Notes under the pieces: generated by a model
What the model was told of the DNA's origin: nothing
The model's database searches: none
The model's input: the letters and a program-made list of their open reading frames with translations, nothing else
Assembly: GCF_020181655.1 (NCBI RefSeq)
Contig: NZ_CP084032.1
Location: 1,984,001 to 2,048,000 of the forward strand
Source of the DNA: Pectobacterium colocasium
GTDB taxonomy: Bacteria; Pseudomonadota; Gammaproteobacteria; Enterobacterales; Enterobacteriaceae
Length of the DNA: 64,000 bases
Direction: 5' to 3'
In this document: piece after piece, positions 637 to 11,184 of the stretch
Layout of the letters: every line of letters begins with the position of its first letter
Numbering within the stretch: position 1 is the stretch's first letter
Translations under genes and position numbers: made by a program

Positions 637-866
637 TCACTATTTTGACAGTAAAACGCCTGTGCGTATAAAAGACGCATAGAATTTAGATCATGTTGTC
701 TTTCACGCGGTAGGGGATGATGTGGGGATAGTGCGTTAACACCCGCTCACGTGTTCCGGATACACGGGCGGGCTTCCGATTGTTGGTCGCTGAGGTAGTC
801 ATTCCACTAGCTTTACGAACTGGCTGTCTGCCAGTGGATCGTCTTGCGCGATATAGAGGTACTCGG
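637..866 (-). pseudogene. broken second copy of the ParE-like toxin
   Basis: This stretch aligns base by base with the intact toxin gene at 2133-2417 but is no longer translatable. Shared segments include the codons for YIAQDDP near 845, the HYP-IIPYRVKD region near 700-730, and the C-terminal tail near 650. It has lost some bases in the middle, which shifts the frame. A CAG codon has become TAA in the segment after RVKDNMI. Its 5' end is missing and replaced by an integrase fragment at about 862-870, so a recombination joined the two genes. It is a remnant of an older element carrying the same toxin-antitoxin module. Confidence 0.8.
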
Positions 867-1095
867 CTTCCCGCATTTGTCTGGCATCAGCCAAAGAAAT
901 TGCCGGATAGCTGCCAAACGTCAACGTAGTGCGCTTTTTAGTTTGTGGGTGGTAATAGCGAAAACGCCATGTCTTTGTGCCGGAAGGTTTGACGAACAAT
1001 AGCAGCCCGCCACCATCATGTAGCGACAATTCTTTGTCTATTACTTTAGCGGCTTTGACTTCCGTGTTTGTGAGGGGCTTTGCCTGAATGTCCAT
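799..1095 (-). pseudogene. truncated P4-type integrase, N-terminus fused to toxin fragment
   Basis: The open frame is 98 codons. Residues 1 to about 76 match the N-terminal DNA-binding (DUF4102) domain of the intact integrase at 9680-10930: both share PLTNTE-KAAK, GG-LLLVK-SG, KTWRFRYY and TKKR. From residue 77 on (AEYLYIAQDDPLADSQFV) the sequence is the toxin homologue instead, and it stops at 799. The core-binding and catalytic tyrosine recombinase domains are absent, so it cannot recombine DNA. A peptide could still be made because the frame is open, but there is no reason to expect function. Confidence 0.85.
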
Positions 1096-1160
1096 GATCG
1101 TTATCTTTGTGACTACGGTTTTATGGGACTACGCTGATTTAGTCCCAAATGTAGTCCCAA

Positions 1161-1272
1161 ACTTTCCGGCTGTAAACGGGGTATCCCGATAGATAACAGG
1201 CAACAAAAAAACCGCAAACTCAGTGAGAATGCGGGTTTTTGTGGGGTTTCCGGTAGTAAACGATACTAACCG
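1161..1272. repeat. direct repeat copy 1 (island boundary)
   Basis: This 112-bp segment is nearly identical to 10986-11097, with only a few mismatches. It lies upstream of the broken integrase, just as the other copy lies upstream of the intact integrase. It contains the same CCCGCA/TGCGGG hairpin. The arrangement marks the int-proximal end of an older related element. Confidence 0.9.
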
Positions 1273-1288
1273 CACGAGAGAAATTGAA
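1272..1288 (-). other. degenerate attachment site, remnant of proL 3' end
   Basis: The 17 bases gcacgagagaaattgaa match 15 of 17 positions of the T-arm and acceptor part of the proL gene (11114-11130). The segment sits at the end of the 112-bp repeat, where an integrated element would leave its distal attachment copy. Compared with the intact locus, about 17 bases including the CCA end are missing between this match and the repeat. I infer it is the left boundary of the satellite. Confidence 0.6.
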
Positions 1289-1429
1289 TTTGCATTATAA
1301 CAACCTGTTTTTATTGTTCATGTTATGATTCGTTTTTTGTTCATATAACTAAACGTATAACTAAAACGAAAAGTCATCCTGAAAAATAGTCTGCGCATGA
1401 CAGTAAGGTTTCGTTTGATACGCTGATTT

Positions 1430-1789
1430 TTAGTGCTGGGTGCGATGTACATTTAATTTTGCCTTACGACGCTCCAACACCATCATTTTGCGTGTGTGCT
1501 GCCATAAAATCCCATCGAGCAACATAAACTCACGCCATTCGGCTGTACCCAAAGAAAGAGATCTGTGCATCAACTCGCCGACACGTTCAGCAAGAAGTAG
1601 GTTTCTTACTCGTAGCAATTGCAACGGCGTGAATCGCCCATCATCACCCGCCAAAGGAAAGAATGCCTGGCGGCTGCGTTCCCCATGTTTCACTGCATTG
1701 GTGTTACCTACGGGAGCACCTGCACCGATACGTTTACCGCCCCAGCCGGACGATCTTGATTGTTGGTCGTGTTTTTTGTTGTCTTTCAT
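1430..1789 (-). CDS. small conserved island protein of unknown function
   Basis: The protein is about 119 residues from the ATG at 1789; a TTG at 1828 would add 13 residues and neither start has a strong ribosome binding site. Near the N-terminus is a Gly-rich basic motif, GWGGKRIGAGAPVGNTNAVK. Motifs of the form GAPxGNxNAxKHG occur at the start of phage small-terminase-like and other mobile-element proteins. The remainder is helical and Arg/Leu rich. It ends the same-strand cluster with the RelB-like and toxin-antitoxin genes. Function is unknown; nucleic-acid binding is a guess from the basic motif. Confidence 0.6.
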   Translation of the reverse strand: MKDNKKHDQQSRSSGWGGKRIGAGAPVGNTNAVKHGERSRQAFFPLAGDDGRFTPLQLLRVRNLLLAERVGELMHRSLSLGTAEWREFMLLDGILWQHTRKMMVLERRKAKLNVHRTQH

Positions 1790-1846
1790 GGCTGAGTGGC
1801 GATTAGTTAGTGGATGTGCGTTCGTCAAAACCCAAAAAGTAAAACA

Positions 1847-2095
1847 CTAAAGATCATCCAGCGTCATGCGTACTGGCTTGGGGTTGTGAAGATGTTCACG
1901 GACAACTTCAACTAATTCTACGTCTTCATCATTGAGTAACTTTTGTTTAAATGGGAGTCTTTCATTTTCAGCAACGTATTCCAACGTAAGGCGCAATGCC
2001 TCAGAAGGTGTAATACCCAGTTTCTTCAGTGCTGCATAAGAGCGCCTTTTAAGATCGTCATCGATACGGAAAGTAACATTACCCATCATATTCAC
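1847..2095 (-). CDS. RelB/DinJ-type antitoxin, apparently orphan
   Basis: This is an 82-residue protein. The N-terminus (NVTFRIDDDLKRRSYAALKKLG) is the ribbon-helix-helix DNA-binding region of the RelB/DinJ family, followed by the typical ITPSEALRLTLEYV helix. The C-terminal third is acidic and likely to wrap a toxin. The expected partner, a RelE/YafQ endonuclease directly downstream, is absent: the next gene (1430-1789) does not resemble a toxin. Upstream lies the ParE-like gene, which already has its own antitoxin. The start is a GTG at 2095 or the ATG pair at 2089/2086. It may regulate its own promoter or act as an anti-addiction antitoxin. Confidence 0.75.
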   Translation of the reverse strand: MNMMGNVTFRIDDDLKRRSYAALKKLGITPSEALRLTLEYVAENERLPFKQKLLNDEDVELVEVVREHLHNPKPVRMTLDDL

Positions 2096-2132
2096 CGGTG
2101 TACTTAGGTTTACTTTTGTGAAGGTTCGTTGT

Positions 2133-2417
2133 TCACCATTTTGCGGGTAAACGTCTGTGTGTATGAAAGACGCGTAGAATCTGGATCATATTATCTTTCA
2201 CGCGGTAGGGGATGATGTAGGGATAGTGAGTTAACACAAGTTCACGCGTTCCAAGTACACGGCCAGGTCTTCCCATTGCTGGCTGTTGCGGTAGTAATTC
2301 CGTCAACCTTTGGACTTCATCTATGAATTGGCTGGCGGCTTGTGGATCGTCCTGCGCGATATAGCGGTACTCGGCTTCCAAATTGGCCGCAGATTTACGC
2401 AGCCATTTAATTTCCAT
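2133..2417 (-). CDS. RelE/ParE superfamily toxin
   Basis: This is a 94-residue protein with the ParE-type fold signature. An N-terminal helical hairpin (NLEAEYRYIAQDDPQAASQF) is followed by GRPGRVLGTREL, the strand HYPYIIPYRV and the C-terminal strand ILRVFHTHRRLP. Family members inhibit gyrase (ParE) or cleave ribosome-bound mRNA (RelE); the GRPGRV and LRVFH motifs favour ParE. Its start overlaps the end of the antitoxin gene by 11 bases, the usual antitoxin-first translational coupling. A mutated, truncated copy sits at 637-866. Likely role: stabilisation of the island. Confidence 0.85.
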   Translation of the reverse strand: MEIKWLRKSAANLEAEYRYIAQDDPQAASQFIDEVQRLTELLPQQPAMGRPGRVLGTRELVLTHYPYIIPYRVKDNMIQILRVFHTHRRLPAKW

Positions 2418-2652
2418 GTCTTGCCGTACCTAACTTTTTAAACAGATTGTCCATCTCATCTGATGAGACAAAATCGCCTGCATCGGCTTCTTTAATAGCT
2501 TGCTCGATCTCTGTTATCTGCCAGGCTTCCCGCGCAAGATAGTCTTCAATAGCTTGTCCAGCCAGAAAAGAGCGGGTACGTCCCGTAGCTTTAGCCAGCG
2601 CATCAAGCTGCGCGGTTGTTTCATCATTTAATCGAACGGACATGACACCCAT
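2407..2652 (-). CDS. ribbon-helix-helix antitoxin of the ParE-like toxin
   Basis: The protein is about 81 residues. The ribbon-helix-helix DNA-binding domain is at the N-terminus (SVRLNDETTAQLDALAKATG, then RTRSFLAGQAIEDYL), followed by an acidic C-terminal tail that would neutralise the toxin. The start is placed at the ATG at 2652, where GAGGTGG lies six bases upstream; an ATG at 2643 is possible and one at 2664 is less well placed. It overlaps the toxin gene downstream. Autoregulation of the operon promoter in 2665-2750 is expected for the family. Confidence 0.85.
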   Translation of the reverse strand: MGVMSVRLNDETTAQLDALAKATGRTRSFLAGQAIEDYLAREAWQITEIEQAIKEADAGDFVSSDEMDNLFKKLGTARHGN

Positions 2653-2844
2653 ACGCCACCTCACTACATTGTGTGTTTTGTATACATTGTAGTTACTAGG
2701 GATATAGGAGGCAAGCTACTACTTAATGGTATTCGGGATGTTGTTCTCTATGCATGTATGGATTAGCAGCTGGCGTCTGTTAAGAGAGTGCAGTGAGCTG
2801 AACCGTGGTATGTTAGGCAACCTAGAACTGAAAACCTAAAAAGG

Positions 2845-3386: not shown

Positions 3387-4709
3387 ATGGAAAAAAAATA
3401 TCAGGTATTTTTGAGCTCCACCTATACAGATTTGGTGGAGGAGAGGGAAAGTATCATTAAAGCAGTCCTAGAATTGTATCATATCCCGATTGGAATGGAG
3501 ATGTTCAGTGCAGAAGATGAAGATCAATGGGAAATAATAAGAAGAACCATAGAGGTAAGTGATTATTACATCTTAGTGTTAGGGTTAAGATATGGTTCAA
3601 AAACGTCCGGTGGGATAAGTTTCACCCATAAAGAATATAATTATGCCTTAGACAAAAAAATCCCTGTTCTTGCATTCTTAATGAATGACACTGTGGCTTT
3701 ATCTGGAGATAAACGAGATGACGATCTCACTGACATTAAAAAATTCCGCAATACTGTTCTAACAAATTCCAAAATGGCACAGTTTTGGGACACAAAAGAC
3801 CAATTAATAAAAAATGTTTCAGTTTCCTTAATGAAGCAGATTATGCAAAAACCTGGGATAGGATGGATACGCGGAGACAATACTTTTGTCAGTGAGTCTC
3901 TATCCAACGAATTATCAGTTCTAAGTAAAGAAAACAGAGAGTTAAGAGAAAAAATTACATTGCTTGAGTCAAAAATAGAAATTAAAAAACCAGATATCAA
4001 ACTATTCATAAATCATCCGTCTGTTGATGAAAAATTCAATTCATTTGCAAAAGTCAGCATGCCTGAAGAATTAAATATAAATGACATCAACCCACACCTC
4101 ATTGAATTTATTTCAGAAGATGATATTGAGCAGCATAATAGCCTCATCCCTAGTGAGCTTGAGCTTGAACAGTTTAACATTGAAAGCGAAAAACACTTCA
4201 AAATAGAAAACTACTCTACCGCTTTAAGAGTTGAAGTTTCCAACAAAGGAACTGCCAAAGCAAATAACATATTTATAGAACTGACCTTTCCTCCAGAAAT
4301 TCTCATATATGAAATTGATAAAAAGCCAGAAAAACCGAAATCTCCGGTCCCTTTTGATCCACGAATCAGGGCGCAAGCGCTTTACCAAAAAAAGCAGGAT
4401 GATTTGAATTCCCTGAAATCATTTTCTATTTATAACCCAATGTCTATGCGTGGGTTAACCGTAACGAATGATTTCATCGACACAAATATTTTCAGAAACA
4501 CCAAACTGGCTGATACCTTGTTTTATACCGTACTGAGAGACAACACTATCACTATTAAACTTGATAACTTAATTCATACAAGGTTAAGAAGGTTTAGTGA
4601 TGAGTACATGATTGTGCCTTTAAATACGGGAAAGCACATTGTTGAAGCTGATATTATTTGTGAAGAATATACTCAGCTTGAGACTGTAACGATTGAACTG
4701 CAAATCTAG
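3387..4709 (+). CDS. DUF4062 (TIR-like) protein, candidate defence effector
   Basis: The protein is 440 residues, preceded by AGAAGG five bases before the ATG. Residues 1 to about 105 form a DUF4062 domain: the hallmark VFLSSTYTDLVEER is at the N-terminus, followed by DYYILVLGLRYGS and FTHKEYNYALDKKIPVLAFL. This domain is related to TIR/SEFIR-type nucleotide-handling folds and is often fused to sensor modules in bacterial immune proteins. Residues about 165-195 look like a coiled coil rich in Leu, Glu and Lys. The C-terminal half is beta-rich (NKGTAKANNIFIELTF) with no family recognised. The gene is far more AT-rich than the backbone and stands alone as cargo between the origin-like repeats and the toxin-antitoxin genes. 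A defence role is inferred from domain and location, not shown. Confidence 0.75.
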   Translation: MEKKYQVFLSSTYTDLVEERESIIKAVLELYHIPIGMEMFSAEDEDQWEIIRRTIEVSDYYILVLGLRYGSKTSGGISFTHKEYNYALDKKIPVLAFLMNDTVALSGDKRDDDLTDIKKFRNTVLTNSKMAQFWDTKDQLIKNVSVSLMKQIMQKPGIGWIRGDNTFVSESLSNELSVLSKENRELREKITLLESKIEIKKPDIKLFINHPSVDEKFNSFAKVSMPEELNINDINPHLIEFISEDDIEQHNSLIPSELELEQFNIESEKHFKIENYSTALRVEVSNKGTAKANNIFIELTFPPEILIYEIDKKPEKPKSPVPFDPRIRAQALYQKKQDDLNSLKSFSIYNPMSMRGLTVTNDFIDTNIFRNTKLADTLFYTVLRDNTITIKLDNLIHTRLRRFSDEYMIVPLNTGKHIVEADIICEEYTQLETVTIELQI

Positions 4710-5081: not shown

Positions 5082-5473
5082 GTGGCCAGTCCGGTGACCT
5101 GCTACCCGTTGAACTCACAGCACACAGCAGACTGTCGAGCTTGGCCAATCTCAGTATTGTTTTACTCGGCCATAGATCGAAACCGTCCCTAATCTACCAT
5201 TTCAAGCACATTCCCCGTCGCGCCGACATCGCAAAAACCATAGCATTTCTATACATGCGTACCGACCAAAAAATTGATTTCAAATTGAATAAAATGAGGT
5301 GTGGTGCGGGTTGCAGCGAGGTACGCAGTTCGTACAGTAATGCGTACAACTGCGTACCACATTGCGAATTTTTCTGTAACCGCTCAGTGTCGGTTTGCGC
5401 ACTTTCGTGCTGGCAATGGTTTAACCCATCATGATTTTTTGTGTGCGTAAATTCTTATAGATAGGCAAAAGTG
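5082..5473. other. non-coding stretch without recognised content
   Basis: Short frames occur on both strands but none shows a ribosome binding site or family resemblance. The part near 5082-5200 may hold further debris of the DsbA-like gene. The part from 5270 has AT-rich and GTACG-containing short repeats (tgcgtaccg, gtacgcagttcgtac) of unknown meaning. Confidence 0.4.
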
Positions 5474-5501
5474 GGTCGGTTCGGTAGGTTCAGTCGGTTC
5501 A
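5474..5501 (+). repeat. 28-bp perfect inverted repeat, left arm
   Basis: The arm begins GGTCGGTTCGGTAGGTTC and ends AGTCGGTTCA, and it is the exact reverse complement of 5703-5730. It contains three of the iterons. The two arms face each other across 201 bases. Confidence 0.95.
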
Positions 5502-5702
5502 CGTAGTCAACTGATTGATAGATAGGGTAATTATTTTTAGAATTGAACCGACTTATGGGTAGGTTCACGCGGTGTGTAGGTCGGTTCATCAAGCCAGCCA
5601 GAAAAGAGGCGTTTGGTTAGGTCGGTTCAAAATAGCTAAAGTCGGTTCAAGGTCGGTTCACTATTCAAATAAAAATAACCATAAATCAATGTATTAAAAT
5701 AA

Positions 5703-5730
5703 TGAACCGACTGAACCTACCGAACCGACC
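5703..5730 (-). repeat. 28-bp perfect inverted repeat, right arm
   Basis: The arm is the exact reverse complement of 5474-5501 and lies between the primase-helicase stop codon (5752) and the AT-rich part of the iteron cluster. Identity stops immediately outside both arms. Confidence 0.95.
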
Positions 5731-5751: not shown

Positions 5752-8358
5752 TTACTCTTCCTCGTCGTCGAGCGTCATGAGCACCACAAAGCGTGGCTGC
5801 TTGCCGTCAATACGCAGTGATTTACGCGTGATGCCTTTGGCGGGTTTGTCCAGCATTCCAGCATCGGCCAGCACTTGCGCAAATGCTGTGGCATTGGCAC
5901 CAGTGGCAATTTCGTTATTGAACACGGCGGGGAAGGTGTGAAACACCAGCGTATCGGCTCCAGGTTTTTTCACCCGATACCCTGCCAAATCCTTGATGGG
6001 TAAATCGCGTGGATCAGGATTGGGGTGTGGTAAATAACGGCTGTAGCCGAACTGGTGCAAAAAGGCATCGGCCTGTTCTACCCAGGCTTTGGCTTCACGG
6101 TTGCCCATGCCAAATTCATTTACCCAGGCATAGAAGCTATGCTGTAACGCATCGTGACATTCCTGCGCCGTCCAGCCAGTAAAAGAGGCAGAAAGTAATA
6201 AAGCGGCTTCCAACACGGCAAAACGTGATGCTACACGCCGCACTTGTTCGCTGGCATCATCGGGCAAGAGTGATAACCAGCGACGCTCTGTTTCGCGGTA
6301 GGTTGCCAGCGCGTTTTCTTTCTGGCTGGCAAGGTGAGCGATCCACGCCCGGCCAACTGCTCCATAATGGGCGTTACTGGCATCACGGATCGCGTCGGCA
6401 TGGGCTTTGCCGTCCTGATAGCCATGAAATACCGTCGCTTTGGTGATCGGGACATTCAGCAGGCGCACCAATTGACCAGCATTTACCCGTCCACCGTCAG
6501 CGCGGATATAGCTTTCCAGATCGATCTCGCCGGTACTGAACGCCATTGCTCGCCAGCGTTTTAGCTCTCGGTTGCCGCCTTCTCTGGCTCCCTGAATTTT
6601 ACCCACGCCGTTAAATAGCGCATAGGCGGCATCGGCCACGGCTTTGCGATTGCTGCCTTGCCCGATTTCATCCAGCGGCATAAAGCCGTCATTGTGGGCG
6701 GCGGCTTCGTTCACCAGCCCTAGCGCAGTGGAATACCACGTTAGTTTAAGCGCATTAGGATCGCCATAGACAGAAGATGCGATATTGCCAGTGGTGGTTT
6801 TACCCGCAGAGGAACCGCCAAATAGATGGACGCCGAATCCGTCCGCGTTTACCAGCCCGATAAGCGGGGCAGCAAAGGCACAAGCGACCCCCAACATCAT
6901 GGAGGGATTACCCTGTGCCAGCGCTGCGACGTTTTCGCGCCAGCTTTGCTCTGTTCCGCTGGTGGCATAACCTTTGGCGGCACCCGATTTACCGTTGAAC
7001 AAGACAGGAATGCTCGGTGTGCCGATAACAGAACCGTCCGGCATTAGGTACGCTCCATGTTGCCAGCCGGTCGCGCTGGCGATTGCCCAGCGGCAACCCG
7101 CATGACTGCGACACAAGTGATCGGCCAGTATTGCCCGTAACCCGCCTTTGGCCGTGACTGCCAGCCCACCCGCACGTAATCGCGCCCAGCCTTCACGTTC
7201 GCCAATATCGCGCATTGGAATGGCTTCGGTGCGGGGCTGGCTTTCACCGCTTGGCGTCCAGCTTAAAACCAGATAACGCTCTGACTCATCCGATCCAATC
7301 CCCGCCACCGTAATAGGATCAGACAGCCAGCTTTCACGCTCGATAATGTCGCCGCTGTCATGGTCAGTCTTCGGCTCTACCCAATACAGCCCGCCATTAC
7401 GAATGTCTGCGTAAGGTTTTAAGGGGGAATTGGAAGACGGTAGCGGCTTTTGTCCTGGCTGATAAAGTGAGGCAGCAAAGGCCGATGTTGATACTGCCGC
7501 GCCATGCTGCTGGTAGTAATCATTCCAGTCGGCTTTTTCAGTGGTAGGCGGGAGCGCTACCCAACCGTTTACCGCCAGTGCCGCTTTTTCAGCCGCGATT
7601 TTTCCGGTGTTGCGACCATCGGTTTTATGGTCATTATCCGCAGCAAGGATGATTTTGGCATCCGGCCAGATAGCACGGCAAGACCGTGCAACGTGAATCA
7701 GATTCCCACTATCTAACGCGCTGATAGCGACACCCTGTATCAGTAACGATGCCGTAATTGCTGTGGCGTAACCTTCGGCAATGATCACTGTATCCGTGTG
7801 TTTGGGTAGGGTACTAACGGGAATGAATGCGCCTTTCTTGCGGCTACCGGCAATCAGCTTTTTCTCGCCATTAGGTTTGATTAGCTGTGCGCCAGTGGTG
7901 GTGCCGTTCATGTTTTGCAGTGCCAGCAACAGGGAACCATCATCCAGCAGTAGTGAGGGGCGTTGCAGCCCCTTATTCAGCAGATAGTCAGATTGACCCG
8001 ATACCGCTTTCGCCACCAGCGAATTTACCCGCTCGGCAATCAGACGATGTTCAGGCTTTTCACTGGCGGGGGGAACGACTGGCAACGGAAGCGCCAGCAC
8101 TTCGGCGACCCGTTCCGCTGCTTGCCATGCGTCACACTTGTTCACTTTCATCACCAGATCCAGTCCGGTTCCTGCGCCGCAGTGAGAACAAAAATAGGTG
8201 CCACGACCTTCTTTATCGTCAAAACGGTAGCGGGTATTCCCGCCACAGTTGGGACATTCACTTTCCTGCCGATTGGTCGGGATGCCTAACCGCTGCAAAA
8301 TTCCCTCCCAATGACCGTTGGCTTTTGTCCGCACGTCTTGAATAAACGTGTTGCTCAT
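5752..8358 (-). CDS. P4 alpha-like primase-helicase
   Basis: This 868-residue protein is the replication protein of the satellite. An N-terminal zinc-binding primase domain has Cys35, Cys38, Cys57 and Cys60 (CPNCGG and CSHCG). A Toprim domain follows (VIIAEGYATAITAS, then ILAADND). A DUF927-type helicase domain has Walker A GGSSAGKTT near residue 515 and Walker B-like MPLDEIGQG. In P4 the homologous alpha protein primes, unwinds and binds the origin. The start at 8358 overlaps the preceding gene's stop by ATGA; an open frame extends 40 codons further upstream but lies over that gene. The iteron cluster follows directly. Confidence 0.92.
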   Translation of the reverse strand: MSNTFIQDVRTKANGHWEGILQRLGIPTNRQESECPNCGGNTRYRFDDKEGRGTYFCSHCGAGTGLDLVMKVNKCDAWQAAERVAEVLALPLPVVPPASEKPEHRLIAERVNSLVAKAVSGQSDYLLNKGLQRPSLLLDDGSLLLALQNMNGTTTGAQLIKPNGEKKLIAGSRKKGAFIPVSTLPKHTDTVIIAEGYATAITASLLIQGVAISALDSGNLIHVARSCRAIWPDAKIILAADNDHKTDGRNTGKIAAEKAALAVNGWVALPPTTEKADWNDYYQQHGAAVSTSAFAASLYQPGQKPLPSSNSPLKPYADIRNGGLYWVEPKTDHDSGDIIERESWLSDPITVAGIGSDESERYLVLSWTPSGESQPRTEAIPMRDIGEREGWARLRAGGLAVTAKGGLRAILADHLCRSHAGCRWAIASATGWQHGAYLMPDGSVIGTPSIPVLFNGKSGAAKGYATSGTEQSWRENVAALAQGNPSMMLGVACAFAAPLIGLVNADGFGVHLFGGSSAGKTTTGNIASSVYGDPNALKLTWYSTALGLVNEAAAHNDGFMPLDEIGQGSNRKAVADAAYALFNGVGKIQGAREGGNRELKRWRAMAFSTGEIDLESYIRADGGRVNAGQLVRLLNVPITKATVFHGYQDGKAHADAIRDASNAHYGAVGRAWIAHLASQKENALATYRETERRWLSLLPDDASEQVRRVASRFAVLEAALLLSASFTGWTAQECHDALQHSFYAWVNEFGMGNREAKAWVEQADAFLHQFGYSRYLPHPNPDPRDLPIKDLAGYRVKKPGADTLVFHTFPAVFNNEIATGANATAFAQVLADAGMLDKPAKGITRKSLRIDGKQPRFVVLMTLDDEEE

Positions 8359-8522
8359 GCGGCCTCGTCCTCCTGCGCGCGGTGGAGCGCATCGAGCCGT
8401 TCGGCAAGAATGAACATCAGGATCTCTTTTGCCTGCGGTTCCCTTAACTCCACGATGGCATAAGCCAGCGCACGGCACTGATCGATCAGTTCTTCCTGTT
8501 CCAGCGGCGTGTTATCAAACAT
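8355..8522 (-). CDS. small protein of the satellite replication operon
   Basis: The 55-residue protein begins MFDNTPLEQEELIDQCRALA and has an excellent ribosome binding site (AGGAGG) before the ATG at 8522. It is acidic and mostly helical, without a signal peptide or membrane segment. It overlaps the primase start by 4 bases and the Icd-like stop by 8 bases, so it is coupled to both. Small proteins of this type commonly precede alpha genes in P4-like islands; function unknown. The same frame is open upstream to 9134, but that part overlaps the Icd-like gene and the C4-type RNA and is not accepted as coding. Confidence 0.7.
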   Translation of the reverse strand: MFDNTPLEQEELIDQCRALAYAIVELREPQAKEILMFILAERLDALHRAQEDEAA

Positions 8523-8712
8523 GGCGCACCTCCTGAATCGGAAGGCGGCCAGCAAAGAACAGAATAAAATCGGGCTCAAAATGCTGACGTGCGGATCGCT
8601 CATTCGGCGCAATAATGGTTTTACGGTGCGGTTTTCCGTGCGGCGCTGTGCGGTAGACCGCCAGAAAGAGAAAGGTAAAATGAGGGTGAAACAGCGTAGG
8701 GGTAGCAACCAT
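8515..8712 (-). CDS. Icd/Kil-like host cell division inhibitor family protein
   Basis: This 65-residue protein has AAGAGG eight bases before its ATG. The C-terminal pattern (FEPDFILFFAGRLPIQEV) and the central RTAPHGKPHRKTIIAPNER resemble the short Icd-like proteins encoded in P4-like satellites, which in P4 inhibit host cell division. The ribosome binding site (8716-8731 region) is complementary to a loop of the C4-type RNA upstream, so translation is likely repressed by that RNA. Assignment rests on motif memory and context. Confidence 0.6.
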   Translation of the reverse strand: MVATPTLFHPHFTFLFLAVYRTAPHGKPHRKTIIAPNERSARQHFEPDFILFFAGRLPIQEVRHV

Positions 8713-8789
8713 AGCGGCGGCCTCTTGTACGGGGTTGAAAACCCCACCACACCGCTGCTAAACAGGGTGGTGGGACGTAACAGGGTTAG

Positions 8790-8850
8790 CAGACCGGCGT
8801 ACAAGAAACCGGCGAGCCCGAAGGCTCCCCCATTACGCCCCACCATAATT
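8790..8850 (-). ncRNA. C4-type antisense RNA (P1 c4 / P4 CI RNA family)
   Basis: The minus strand carries a hairpin with a UUCG loop (stem GAGCC/GGCTC, 8814-8827), flanked by two single-strand segments complementary to the downstream mRNA. The segment at 8799-8812 pairs over 14 bases, two of them G-U, with 8718-8731, which covers the ribosome binding site of the Icd-like gene. The segment at 8833-8844 pairs over 12 bases, one of them G-U, with 8769-8780. This two-box design is that of C4 RNA, which is processed from the leader and blocks its own operon, giving superinfection immunity in P1 and P4. Ends are approximate. Confidence 0.8.
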
Positions 8851-8960
8851 TGGGCATAACTTGGTTTACGGACGTAAAAAAACCGCATGAAACTAAAGCG
8901 GTCGTCCGCTTGTACATTCAGGCTGCTAAACCTGGTCGCCGATTTTGCGGCAACGGTGAA

Positions 8961-8990
8961 ACGATAAGCCAGATGCCCCGCCAGCGTCAA
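8961..8990 (-). promoter_or_regulatory. possible promoter of the C4-primase operon
   Basis: On the minus strand TTGACG and TATCGT are separated by 18 bases, about 110 bases upstream of the C4-type RNA. The match to the -10 consensus is moderate. The stretch 8991-9187 contains no other supported feature. Confidence 0.3.
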
Positions 8991-9187
8991 TACGTTTTGT
9001 ATTGGGTTTGCTAAGTGTTGCGCATTTTTCAGAGAGAGAAAAATGAACTCGCTATTGTGTATAAAAAAGGCTGTTTCCTGATTTTGGGCGTAGCAATGCC
9101 CGTTCCAGACAGTGCCAGATTTTTGGATCATCATATTTTTTGATTCCGATATACCGCTAGCGCGGCAATAAAAATGAAGGTGTCGGA

Positions 9188-9403
9188 TTATGCGGTTTCG
9201 GTTTGCTGGTCACGTTCGGCAATGCGTTGCCTTAACCAATCGCTAACTTCGTCCTCGAACCAGCCTACGCGCCGTAAGCCAACCCGAAACCCTTTGGGGA
9301 ATTCTCCGGCATTGATCATTTCCTGAAAGCTGCTGTCTGAACTAACGCGCAGAATGGCTTTCACTTCTTTCTTTAACAGGATTTTTCTGTCTAACAGATT
9401 CAT
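9188..9403 (-). CDS. AlpA/Vis-type regulator of the satellite
   Basis: The 71-residue protein has a winged-helix DNA-binding fold of the AlpA family. The start (MNLLDRKILLKKEVKAIL) is followed by RVSSDSSFQEMINAGEFPKG and the recognition wing VGLRRVGWFEDEVSDWLRQR. P4 Vis and AlpA homologues regulate late promoters and act as excisionases with the neighbouring integrase. GGAGATAAAG precedes the ATG at 9403. It sits between the integrase and the leader of the replication operon, the standard P4 order. The 276 bases to the integrase (9404-9679) have a weak 60-codon frame I do not accept and probably hold promoters. Confidence 0.85.
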   Translation of the reverse strand: MNLLDRKILLKKEVKAILRVSSDSSFQEMINAGEFPKGFRVGLRRVGWFEDEVSDWLRQRIAERDQQTETA

Positions 9404-9679
9404 ACGTCTTTATCTCCAATGAAACCGGCGTTGTCCGGTCAGTGCAGATAGTTAAACGGTTCTTGAGGGAGGAGTATGATAATTTAGGTTTAAATTTGGG
9501 AAAATTAAGTAAATTCTTGAAATAATGGTTCTGATAACTGAACGCTGCCTTACAGCCAGTTTATGAAAGAATTCATTCTTATTCTGCGTGTTCTCACTGA
9601 GAACATCACCGACTATATGCGCTACATATTCCACGCGTTTTTTCTGGTTTAGTTTATTATCCCATATATAAACACAGTA

Positions 9680-10930
9680 TCAGCCATTGGCGATGCGCAA
9701 ACCTCTGGCTCCTTCTGACGCCATGACTTTTCCCGTTGCGGCTGTTTCGACAAATTCACCCCACCAGCACATCAATATTTTGCGCTGTTCCAGATAAGTG
9801 GATCGGTTATAGGCGCGGCGCACTTCGTTGGTGTCTACATGGGCGAGGGCGGCTTCGATCACGTCTGGCGGGAACCCTTCTTCATTGGCCGCTGTACTGA
9901 ATATGGCGCGCAGGCCATGAGACACCAGCACACCTTTGTAACCCATACGGCGCAATGCGGCGTTAGCAGTCTGGCTGTTCATCGGCTGCTTAGGGTCTTT
10001 ACTGGAAGGAAACAGGTATTCACGGTGTCCGCTGATGGGCTTCATGGCGTCCAGAATAGCTAATGCCTGCGGAGGTAGGGGAATAACGTGATCACGACGC
10101 ATCTTCATACGGCCAGCGGGGATCGTCCAGGTGTTCTCCGTCAGGTTTATTTCGCTCCAGCGGGTTTCAGCGGCTTCGGCAGGGCGGGTAACGGTGAGTA
10201 GCTGCCATTCAATCAATAAGCGGGTCTGTAACTCAATGCTGGCGACCGATAGCGTTTTCATCAAGCCAGGTAATGCCTCTGGCCGGATAGTTGGCATATG
10301 GGTTTTCACCGGCGTCTGAAAGGCTTTGCGGATCTTGGCGGCGGGGTTAGCGGGAATCAGCCCAGAGTTAACTGCATAATCCATCACCTCGTTAATTCGC
10401 TGGCTTACCCGCTTGACGGTTTCCAGTTTGCCGCTGGCCTGTATCGGTTCCAACGCGGTGATGAAGTGACGAGCGGTAAGCTGGGTGATCGGTAAGGTTC
10501 CGATGAACGGGAACACGTATTTTTCCAGCGAACGCCAGATATCTTTAATGGTGTTCTCGGCCAGCGGTTGAGACTTTTTCACTTCGTACCAGTCGGCGGA
10601 AACTTTGGCGAACGTGTTCAGGTTGATGGCTTGCTCTTGTTCGCGCTGCTGTTGCTGGTGGAATTGTGGATCGATTCCTTTGCTGATAAGCGCCTTTGCC
10701 GCCTCACGTCGTTGTCGAGCTTCGGCCAACGAAACCGCAGGGAATGAACCAAAGCTGATTAACGCACGTTTCTTCGTATCGGGGCGGTAGTAGTTAAAGC
10801 GCCAGATTTTAGAGCCGCTCGATTTCACCAGCAGATACAACCCATCCCCGTCCTGTAGCGTGTATTCCTTCTCGGCAGGTTTGGCGGCTTTGATCTCGGT
10901 ATTGGTCAGTGGGGTAGTTATACGAGCCAT
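9680..10930 (-). CDS. P4-type site-specific tyrosine integrase
   Basis: The 416-residue protein has an N-terminal DUF4102 DNA-binding domain (PLTNTEIKAAKPAEKEYTL), a core-binding domain and a C-terminal tyrosine recombinase domain. Catalytic residues are visible: Arg249 in LTVTRPAEA, His338 and Arg341 in SHGLRA, His364 in ALAHVD and Tyr374 in RRAYNR. It integrates and, with the AlpA-type protein, excises the element at the tRNA 3' end. The gene lies 178 bases from proL with its start facing the tRNA. Length and residues are complete, so it is probably active. Its N-terminal portion is duplicated as a remnant at 799-1095. Confidence 0.95.
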   Translation of the reverse strand: MARITTPLTNTEIKAAKPAEKEYTLQDGDGLYLLVKSSGSKIWRFNYYRPDTKKRALISFGSFPAVSLAEARQRREAAKALISKGIDPQFHQQQQREQEQAINLNTFAKVSADWYEVKKSQPLAENTIKDIWRSLEKYVFPFIGTLPITQLTARHFITALEPIQASGKLETVKRVSQRINEVMDYAVNSGLIPANPAAKIRKAFQTPVKTHMPTIRPEALPGLMKTLSVASIELQTRLLIEWQLLTVTRPAEAAETRWSEINLTENTWTIPAGRMKMRRDHVIPLPPQALAILDAMKPISGHREYLFPSSKDPKQPMNSQTANAALRRMGYKGVLVSHGLRAIFSTAANEEGFPPDVIEAALAHVDTNEVRRAYNRSTYLEQRKILMCWWGEFVETAATGKVMASEGARGLRIANG

Positions 10931-10985
10931 CGTAGTTATACGCTTTTGTAGTTATATGGGGCGGTATAACTAAGCGTATAACTAA

Positions 10986-11097
10986 ACTTTCCGGCTGTAA
11001 ACGGGGTATCCCGATAGATAACAGGCAACGAAAAACCCGCAAACTCAGTGAGAATGCGGGTTTCTGTGGGGTTTCCGGTAGTAAACGATACTAACCG
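10986..11097. repeat. direct repeat copy 2 (between integrase and proL)
   Basis: This 112-bp segment is nearly identical to 1161-1272. It includes the hairpin that terminates proL and the spacer up to 10 bases from the tRNA 3' end. Together the two copies bracket the satellite. Confidence 0.9.
11031..11060 (-). terminator. terminator of proL
   Basis: On the minus strand the hairpin CCCGCA...TGCGGG has a short inner CTC/GAG stem and is followed by TTTTTCG. It lies about 50 bases beyond the tRNA end. Confidence 0.65.
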
Positions 11098-11107
11098 AAG
11101 TTGTATT

Positions 11108-11184
11108 TGGTCGGCACGAGAGGATTTGAACCTCCGACCCCCGACACCCCATGACGGTGCGCTACCAGGCTGCGCTACGTGCCG
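11108..11184 (-). tRNA. proL: tRNA-Pro(GGG)
   Basis: The 77-base cloverleaf begins CGGCACGTAGCGCAGCCTGG and ends in an encoded CCA. The acceptor stem CGGCACG pairs with CGTGCCG, the anticodon loop AUGGGGU gives anticodon GGG, and the T-arm contains GGTTCAAATCC. Sequence and neighbourhood (next to yejM) match E. coli proL. Its 3' end is the integration site of the satellite and remains intact after integration. Confidence 0.97.

What the first reader, a model, noticed from the sequence alone, without database searches (positions are those of the whole stretch)
5474..5730. Perfect 28-bp inverted repeat enclosing twelve 8-bp iterons behind a satellite primase-helicase
The arms at 5474-5501 and 5703-5730 are exact reverse complements, each made of three overlapping TCGGTTCA-type units, and further copies fill the space between. 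This symmetric, both-orientation layout goes beyond ordinary crr elements and could be a binding array for the alpha-like protein that defines a bidirectional origin, or an end structure that directs replication or packaging. The location directly after the alpha-like gene parallels P4 crr.
Basis: partly seen in the sequence, partly recalled or inferred. Interest (0 to 1): 0.75.

Follow-up and report, generated by a model that had tools for sequence, protein, structure and literature searches.

The report
Doubled mirror-image satellite replication origin
A small mobile element in a soft-rot plant bacterium carries, beside its primase-helicase gene, what looks like two mirror-image copies of a known type of satellite replication origin placed side by side, while many relatives keep the two copies apart.

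Summary
In detail: exact 28-bp inverted arms and twelve 8-bp units. Comparable arrays lie just 3' of related primase genes in most relatives (19 of 26 rows at 55-90% identity; 16 of 16 at 90% or more with flank held), so the array is very probably the origin read by that protein. The initiator is only half P4-like: its primase half resembles P4 alpha, its helicase half is DUF927, as in SaPI Rep. The known PICI origin (two iteron sets flanking an A+T tract, 3' of rep) is the right class. P4's crr and ori already hold repeats in both orientations, so that is not the unusual part. Unusual: the array is two such modules as mirror images, whose outer unit triples form the arms. In nine of twelve relatives with one adjacent module and downstream DNA fetched, and in a 12-kb circular E. 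coli record, a second module with the same unit lies 0.6-11.5 kb away, as P4's crr lies apart from its ori. Lineage-specific arm variants are shared by both arms, so the modules evolve in concert. A residue of the initiator's C-terminal domain co-varies with the unit. Function is inferred; the second module's role is open.

The parts
5474..5501 (+). Outer arm of module 2: three units (5476-5483, 5485-5492, 5494-5501) at 9-bp pitch
   Evidence: arms of relatives
5502..5543 (.). A+T-rich spacer of module 2 (42 nt); IHF-like WATCAANNNNTTR at 5508-5520 (-), 6 nt from the arm
5544..5551 (-). Inner unit of module 2, facing the left arm; start-to-start 50 bp
5560..5588 (+). Central units 5560-5567 and 5581-5588, assigned to module 2 by comparison with L010, where a stretch of other DNA separates the two modules
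5622..5660 (+). Inner units of module 1 (5622-5629, 5642-5649, 5653-5660; spacing 20 and 11)
5661..5702 (.). A+T-rich spacer of module 1 (42 nt); IHF-like site at 5684-5696 (+), 6 nt from the arm
5703..5730 (-). Outer arm of module 1: three units, exact reverse complement of 5474-5501
5752..8358 (-). Initiator (868 aa): Zn-ribbon/Toprim primase half, DUF927 helicase half, C-terminal domain; proposed reader of the units
8763..8967 (-). P4-type immunity RNAs: C4 antisense RNA 8763-8850, isrK 8876-8954, c4-a1b1 target 8915-8967
9188..9403 (-). AlpA-family regulator
9680..10930 (-). Tyrosine integrase
11108..11184 (-). tRNA-Pro (ggg), insertion site; its 3' end (11113-11132) is one att copy
1271..1290 (.). 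Proposed imperfect att copy at the far end (5 of 20 mismatches); element about 9.86 kb
   Evidence: equivalent copies in L008 and L012, none at 5 mismatches or fewer in L005 and L007

Best explanation
The segment is the replication origin of a small integrative satellite-type element (P4/PICI kind) and is built of two mirror-image origin modules fused side by side. The C-terminal domain of the element's own primase-helicase binds the 8-bp units from both sides of each 42-nt A+T-rich spacer. Helicase rings load there and melt the spacer once the element is excised. The two modules, bound by the same protein, presumably also pair with each other, as is thought for ori and crr in P4 (recalled). 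Shown by sequence: the array, its conservation, the two modules, the shared arm variants, and the co-variation with the initiator. Inferred: binding, melting, pairing, and which module fires.
For: Position 3' of the initiator and unit conservation: across 10 distinct Pectobacterium-type copies, 92 of 96 unit bases are invariant, against 116 of 157 other bases inside the array, 158 of 200 in the end of the gene, 57 of 100 just beyond the array and 108 of 150 further on. Same layout in L009, L011, L014, L015 and L017 at 59-69% protein identity. A sequence-blind geometry scan gave 59 hits in 131 loci (1.046 Mb, overlapping loci included), all at primase-adjacent arrays or at the distant modules described here, and 0 in 15 shuffles of the window. 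Second module at a distance with the same unit: 9 of 12 stretches (7, 2 degenerate), plus both modules in a closed 12,152-bp E. coli record. Shared arm variants: 0-1 mismatch of 28 in 19 of 19 intact rows, 14 distinct genomes; perfect arms of 35 and 46 nt in L009 and L011. Unit-initiator co-variation: residue R with ..GGTTC in 20 of 20 distinct rows, V with GGTTT (1 row), S with TCGGTTA (2 rows) (position chosen after seeing the alignment). Published relatives work this way: PMC6092414 (section 6 and passages) and PMC7581432 (passages).
Against: No experiment. In seven relatives the second module's spacer is G+C-rich and conserved, so it cannot be an A+T melting site there. Two of 12 relatives had no second module within 12 kb on either side and a third ran into a contig end, so the second module may be dispensable. 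Rows at 45% identity or more with no array found beside the gene: L013, L016, L018, L020, L053, L062, L077, L083, L087, L088, L089, some of them fragments; only L083 and L089 were resolved. Spacers alone are clearly mirrored in only two of six fused lineages (L011, L014; window p 0.07). The co-variation fails in the CGGGTTA group (K, K, R with A). The structure model is of low confidence (mean pLDDT 66).
Confidence: 0.78

Rival explanations
1. One ordinary PICI-type origin (module 1) plus a second iteron cluster that acts in control, by titration or handcuffing of the initiator, not as an origin.
For: Module 2 spacer is G+C-rich in seven relatives; module 2 was not found or is degenerate in some; published Gram-negative PICI origins are described with one A+T region between two iteron sets (PMC6092414).
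Against: In the window lineage and in the split relatives the module 2 spacer is A+T-rich and mostly of equal or near-equal length; in 8 of 18 pairs it resembles the mirror of module 1 at p below 0.05.
Confidence: 0.35
2. The inverted repeat works as DNA or RNA secondary structure: cruciform, hairpin end, transcription terminator or packaging signal.
For: Strong single-strand fold, z -9.2; perfect arms up to 46 nt in L011.
Against: Arms are made of the same units that fill the centre; the loop is about 200 nt; no terminator-like site was found; in split relatives the two arms are 0.6-11.5 kb apart; no confident packaging gene in the element.
Confidence: 0.05
3. The arms are substrates for recombination that flips the 200-bp centre (a switch).
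For: Long perfect inverted arms, shared variants in both arms.
Against: The centre has the same orientation relative to the initiator in the window and in L009, L011, L014, L015 and L017; no recombinase other than the integrase among the proteins scanned.
Confidence: 0.03

Closest known systems
Gram-negative PICI origins (e.g. EcCICFT073; PMC6092414)
   Same: Origin 3' of the pri-rep gene; two iteron sets flanking an A+T-rich region; AlpA and integrase nearby.
   Different: Published description has one A+T region; here two mirror modules are fused, with 28-bp perfect arms. No confident helper-interference or packaging gene recognised in this element.
SaPIbov1 Rep / Cch (DUF927) initiator helicases with downstream iterons (PMC7581432)
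   Same: DUF927 helicase half; origin directly downstream; C-terminal domain recognises iterons in the SaPI proteins.
   Different: Here fused to a P4-alpha-like Toprim primase; Gram-negative host; the units of those origins were not compared here.
Satellite phage P4 ori and crr
   Same: 8-bp repeats in both orientations around A+T-rich gaps of fixed length (35 nt in all three P4 gaps); crr just 3' of alpha; two sites per element.
   Different: P4 sites are 4.7 kb apart, the unit is mostly TGTTCACC, the helicase half of alpha does not align, and P4 has sid, psu and delta.

Membership tests
Gram-negative PICI | integrase + alpA + primase/rep in one direction | tested here: met
   window 5752-10930, all on minus strand
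Gram-negative PICI | origin 3' of rep: two iteron sets flanking an A+T-rich region | tested here: met
   doubled here
Gram-negative PICI | discrete element with its own attachment site | tested here: met
   imperfect att copies at tRNA-Pro; 9.7-9.9 kb in window, L008 and L012; no second copy at 5 mismatches or fewer in L005, L007
Gram-negative PICI | att site not used by temperate prophages | not tested
   not examined
Gram-negative PICI | phage interference or capsid/packaging-related genes, cos or pac of a helper | tested here: inconclusive
   no confident family among the ORFs scanned; ORF 1430-1828 weakly resembles a terminase small subunit (17.1 bits, E 0.006); only some GN-PICIs carry capsid genes; cos not searched
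Gram-negative PICI | induction and transfer by a helper phage | not testable with these tools
   needs experiment
P4-type satellite | alpha protein over its whole length | tested here: not met
   hhalign covers residues 8-302 only
P4-type satellite | C4-type (CI) immunity RNA between regulator and primase | tested here: met
   C4 84.3 bits, gathering 45
P4-type satellite | sid, psu, delta genes | tested here: not met
   none among the ORFs scanned
DUF927 (SaPIbov1 Rep/Cch type) initiator | DUF927 helicase domain | tested here: met
   PF06048 155 bits; PDB 8tch and 5dgk by profile
DUF927 (SaPIbov1 Rep/Cch type) initiator | C-terminal domain binds iterons | tested here: inconclusive
   co-variation only; model shows strands and two helices at 793-863 at modest confidence

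The most novel reading that the evidence does not exclude
DUF927-type satellite replicons in general have a two-part, mirror-image origin comparable to P4's ori plus crr, with the second module overlooked because it often lies kilobases away. The window carries a natural fused version whose outer unit triples are kept alike by gene conversion, and unit specificity is set largely by a short stretch near the initiator's C-terminus.
Probability: 0.42. Interest if true: 0.65.

Novelty: new variant of a known kind. Interest (0 to 1): 0.5.

Why it matters
P4 needs two separate sites, ori and crr, to replicate, and why is an old question (recalled, not looked up). If PICI-type elements also carry paired mirror modules, the pairing is a general rule, and the fused natural version is the smallest system in which to test it. 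The unit-initiator co-variation gives a way to predict which satellites share an origin and would compete.

Tried and rejected
Equal spacer length as a universal rule: rejected. Equal in the window lineage, L009, L011, L015 (52/52), L014 (60/60), L017 (50/50) and L069 (54/54), but unequal in L022, L023, L024, L037, L049, L061, L063 and L071.

IHF site in the spacer: kept only as a hint. Exact WATCAANNNNTTR in 16 of 52 spacers; shuffle mean 0.53, maximum 3 in 300 rounds; the rows are not independent. In the second set 4 of 23 A+T-rich spacers matched (shuffle mean 0.26, maximum 3), and three of those are identical to rows of the first set. None of the three P4 gaps matched. Printed but left out: both gaps of L008 (near-identical to the window), one low-A+T gap each of L023, L037, L066 and L068, and the gaps of L003, L018, L072 and L076.

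Mirror of the spacers: weaker than I first thought. First 24 nt: 8 of 18 pairs at p below 0.05 (window, L010, L011, L021, L036, L038, L048, L098), ten not (L009, L014, L015, L017, L024, L056, L063, L069, L071, L085). Own pairs sum to 223 of 432; permuted pairings mean 181, sd 11.5, maximum 226 of 5000; shuffles mean 148, maximum 179 of 1000. Whole spacer without unit bases: p 0.001 (L014), 0.008 (L011), 0.06 (L009), 0.07 (window), 0.12 (L015), 0.24 (L017). The stronger figures (27-43 of 62) include the facing unit and, in L009 and L011, part of the arm, so they overstate it. Left out: pairs with a G+C-rich second spacer, near-duplicates (L008, L072, L079, L086, L090, L092, L101), L022, L049, L057, L061, L066, L073, and the degenerate second modules of L108 and L119.

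Row failures: two of 21 rows (L019 and L042, one decayed copy) were mislocated by the script and not counted; one search shows L019 has lost one arm unit. The 19 counted rows include five genomes twice.

CFT073 PICI for comparison: the stretch fetched was a lambdoid prophage, not the PICI. Foldseek was not run because the model is weak.

Papers seen: PMC6092414 passages and section 6; PMC7581432, PMC7145576, PMC4936722, PMC9942202 and PMC10111431 passages; the 1993 P4 review is not held. No title or abstract start in the listings of searches mentions a second distal module; listings were capped and the library lacks most subscription papers, so this is weak evidence of novelty.

Full report
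WHAT IS THERE. The claimed arms are exact over 28 bp and twelve 8-bp units fill 5474-5730. Read on the strand of the primase gene the order is >>> / A+T 42 nt / <<<<< / > / A+T 42 nt / <<<, with facing units 50 bp apart, start to start, around both A+T tracts (the register used reads 52/52). BLAST aligns the array with its own reverse complement over 90 nt at 75%.

THE ELEMENT. The array sits 3' of an 868-codon primase-helicase gene (5752-8358, minus strand). Beyond the gene come C4/isrK RNAs, an AlpA regulator and an integrase next to tRNA-Pro. Imperfect att copies at 11113-11132 and 1271-1290 would bound an element of about 9.86 kb; the same pair gives about 9.7 kb in L008 and L012, but L005 and L007 showed no second copy. 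No confident capsid, terminase, sid, psu or delta family was found among the ORFs scanned; ORF 1430-1828 has a very weak terminase-small-subunit match (E 0.006).

THE INITIATOR. Its primase half matches P4 alpha (residues 8-302, hhalign probability 100) and nothing beyond aligns. The other half is DUF927 and matches PDB chains 8tch, 'Pathogenicity island protein', and 5dgk, 'Active helicase'. PMC7581432 (passages) says that DUF927 Cch is related to SaPIbov1 Rep, that SaPI Rep reads its origin with its C-terminal domain, and that the origin of iterons lies directly downstream. PMC6092414 says Gram-negative PICI origins always have two iteron sets flanking an A+T-rich region 3' of rep, and that one such pri-rep-ori segment maintains a plasmid. 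So the array belongs to that class.

RELATIVES. In the genus 22 of 25 genomes have some match to the protein, and the array DNA is found in 14 of 25, 11 of them nearly full length. In the order 100 of 394 genomes matched the protein, in the family 145 of 372. By identity of the fetched rows, an array of units in both orientations lies within 520 nt 3' of the gene in 16 of 18 rows at 90% or more (two end at a contig end), 19 of 26 at 55-90%, 31 of 35 at 45-55% and 19 of 24 below 45% (two too short); some genomes are counted twice, and in the last band the layout differs. Across ten distinct close copies unit bases are far more conserved than the rest (92/96 against 116/157). A detector that knows only the geometry found 59 hits in 131 fetched loci (1.046 Mb, some overlapping), all at primase-adjacent arrays or the distant modules below, and none in fifteen shuffled windows. 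The 321-nt array had no blastn match in the plasmid or phage collections.

TWO MODULES. In many relatives only module 1 lies beside the gene. Of the 18 stretches fetched, twelve were downstream of such genes (a choice, not all of them). A second module with the same unit and facing orientation was found in nine: seven and two degenerate ones, under a looser rule, at 0.6 to 11.5 kb. L109 and L112 had none within 12 kb on either side, and L117 ended about 4.7 kb after the gene. A closed 12,152-bp E. coli record has both modules 1.9 kb apart, with 21 of the first 24 spacer bases mirrored. Only that record and the 0.6-kb case are certain to hold both modules in one element; for the others this is inferred from the shared unit. 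Two relatives without an adjacent array (L083, L089) carry the module 5.4 and 6.7 kb upstream, found with seven candidate units and again by the sequence-blind detector. L083's C-terminal sequence is close to that of L009, and its unit is the same.

CONCERTED EVOLUTION. Each fused lineage has its own variant of the middle arm unit, and both arms share it: TAGGTTCA (window), TCGGTTCA (L009), TCGGGTCA (L011), GTGGGTTA (L015), TCAGTTCA (L017). Mismatch between arms is 0 or 1 of 28 in all 19 intact rows (14 distinct genomes). Perfect arms reach 46 nt in L011, 35 in L009, 29 in L023 and 25 in L015, but only 13-19 in L014, L017, L024, L037 and L049; the control maximum is 9. Gene conversion between modules is the simplest reading. 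The spacers themselves are much less mirrored: clearly so in L011 and L014, not significantly in the window (p 0.07), L009, L015 or L017.

CO-VARIATION. One position three before the G of the GKQ motif (R849 here) is R in 20 of 20 distinct rows with a ..GGTTC unit, V in the one GGTTT row and S in both TCGGTTA rows. The CGGGTTA group breaks the rule with K, K and R; six further rows have units that cannot be aligned this way. The position was picked after seeing the alignment, the rows are related, and L017 was skipped by the script's pattern (read by eye it fits). The model puts this residue in a low-confidence stretch of a small C-terminal domain.

P4 COMPARISON. P4 has the same grammar: repeats in both orientations, three 35-nt A+T-rich gaps with facing units 43 bp apart, crr 3' of alpha and ori 4.7 kb away. 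That both P4 sites are required is recalled, not read here.

VERDICT. Origin of a PICI/P4-like element: very likely. Two modules in mirror arrangement: shown as sequence, by units and arms. A new variant of a known kind.

Noticed in passing
window 799-1275: Integrase N-terminal remnant plus a copy of the integrase-att intergenic stretch (1159-1272 resembles 10984-11097): trace of a second, tandem element at the same tRNA-Pro.
   Followed up: partly
window 1430-1828: ORF with a very weak terminase-small-subunit match over 26 residues (phrog_1889, 17.1 bits, E 0.006); no Pfam match. If real it would strengthen a PICI reading.
   Followed up: no
window 8763-8967: C4 antisense RNA, isrK and c4-a1b1 matches: P4-type immunity RNA kept in an element with a non-P4 helicase.
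   Followed up: no
window 5313-5365: A second small repeat set (TGCGTAC-type, inverted 18 nt) about 110 nt beyond the array; GTACGCA-type copies also follow the array in L007 and cluster in L108.
   Followed up: no
L023, L037, L076, L097, L099, L103, L104 downstream of the primase: In these relatives the second module's spacer is a conserved G+C-rich 34-38-nt element with a GGCGCGG core instead of an A+T tract. Purpose unknown; could be a cos-like or regulatory site.
   Followed up: no
L047 (G007) and G012:C1:3779413-3779579: L047: array kept where only a short piece of the primase end matches. G012: half an array without a near-identical primase match in that genome.
   Followed up: no
G000:C1:824008-826611 and 465208-466158 (L002, L003): Two more related primase genes in the same chromosome have downstream repeats with other units (GGTTACA, TCCCCCA): apparently separate origin specificities in one host.
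   Followed up: partly
window 1847-2664 and 3387-4709: Cargo: RelB/DinJ-type antitoxin, ParE-type toxin with ribbon-helix-helix antitoxin, and a DUF4062 protein; no PADLOC match.
   Followed up: partly
L113:6445-6706: Cluster of GGTAACA repeats downstream of the L083 primase, with a unit other than that of its origin module.
   Followed up: no
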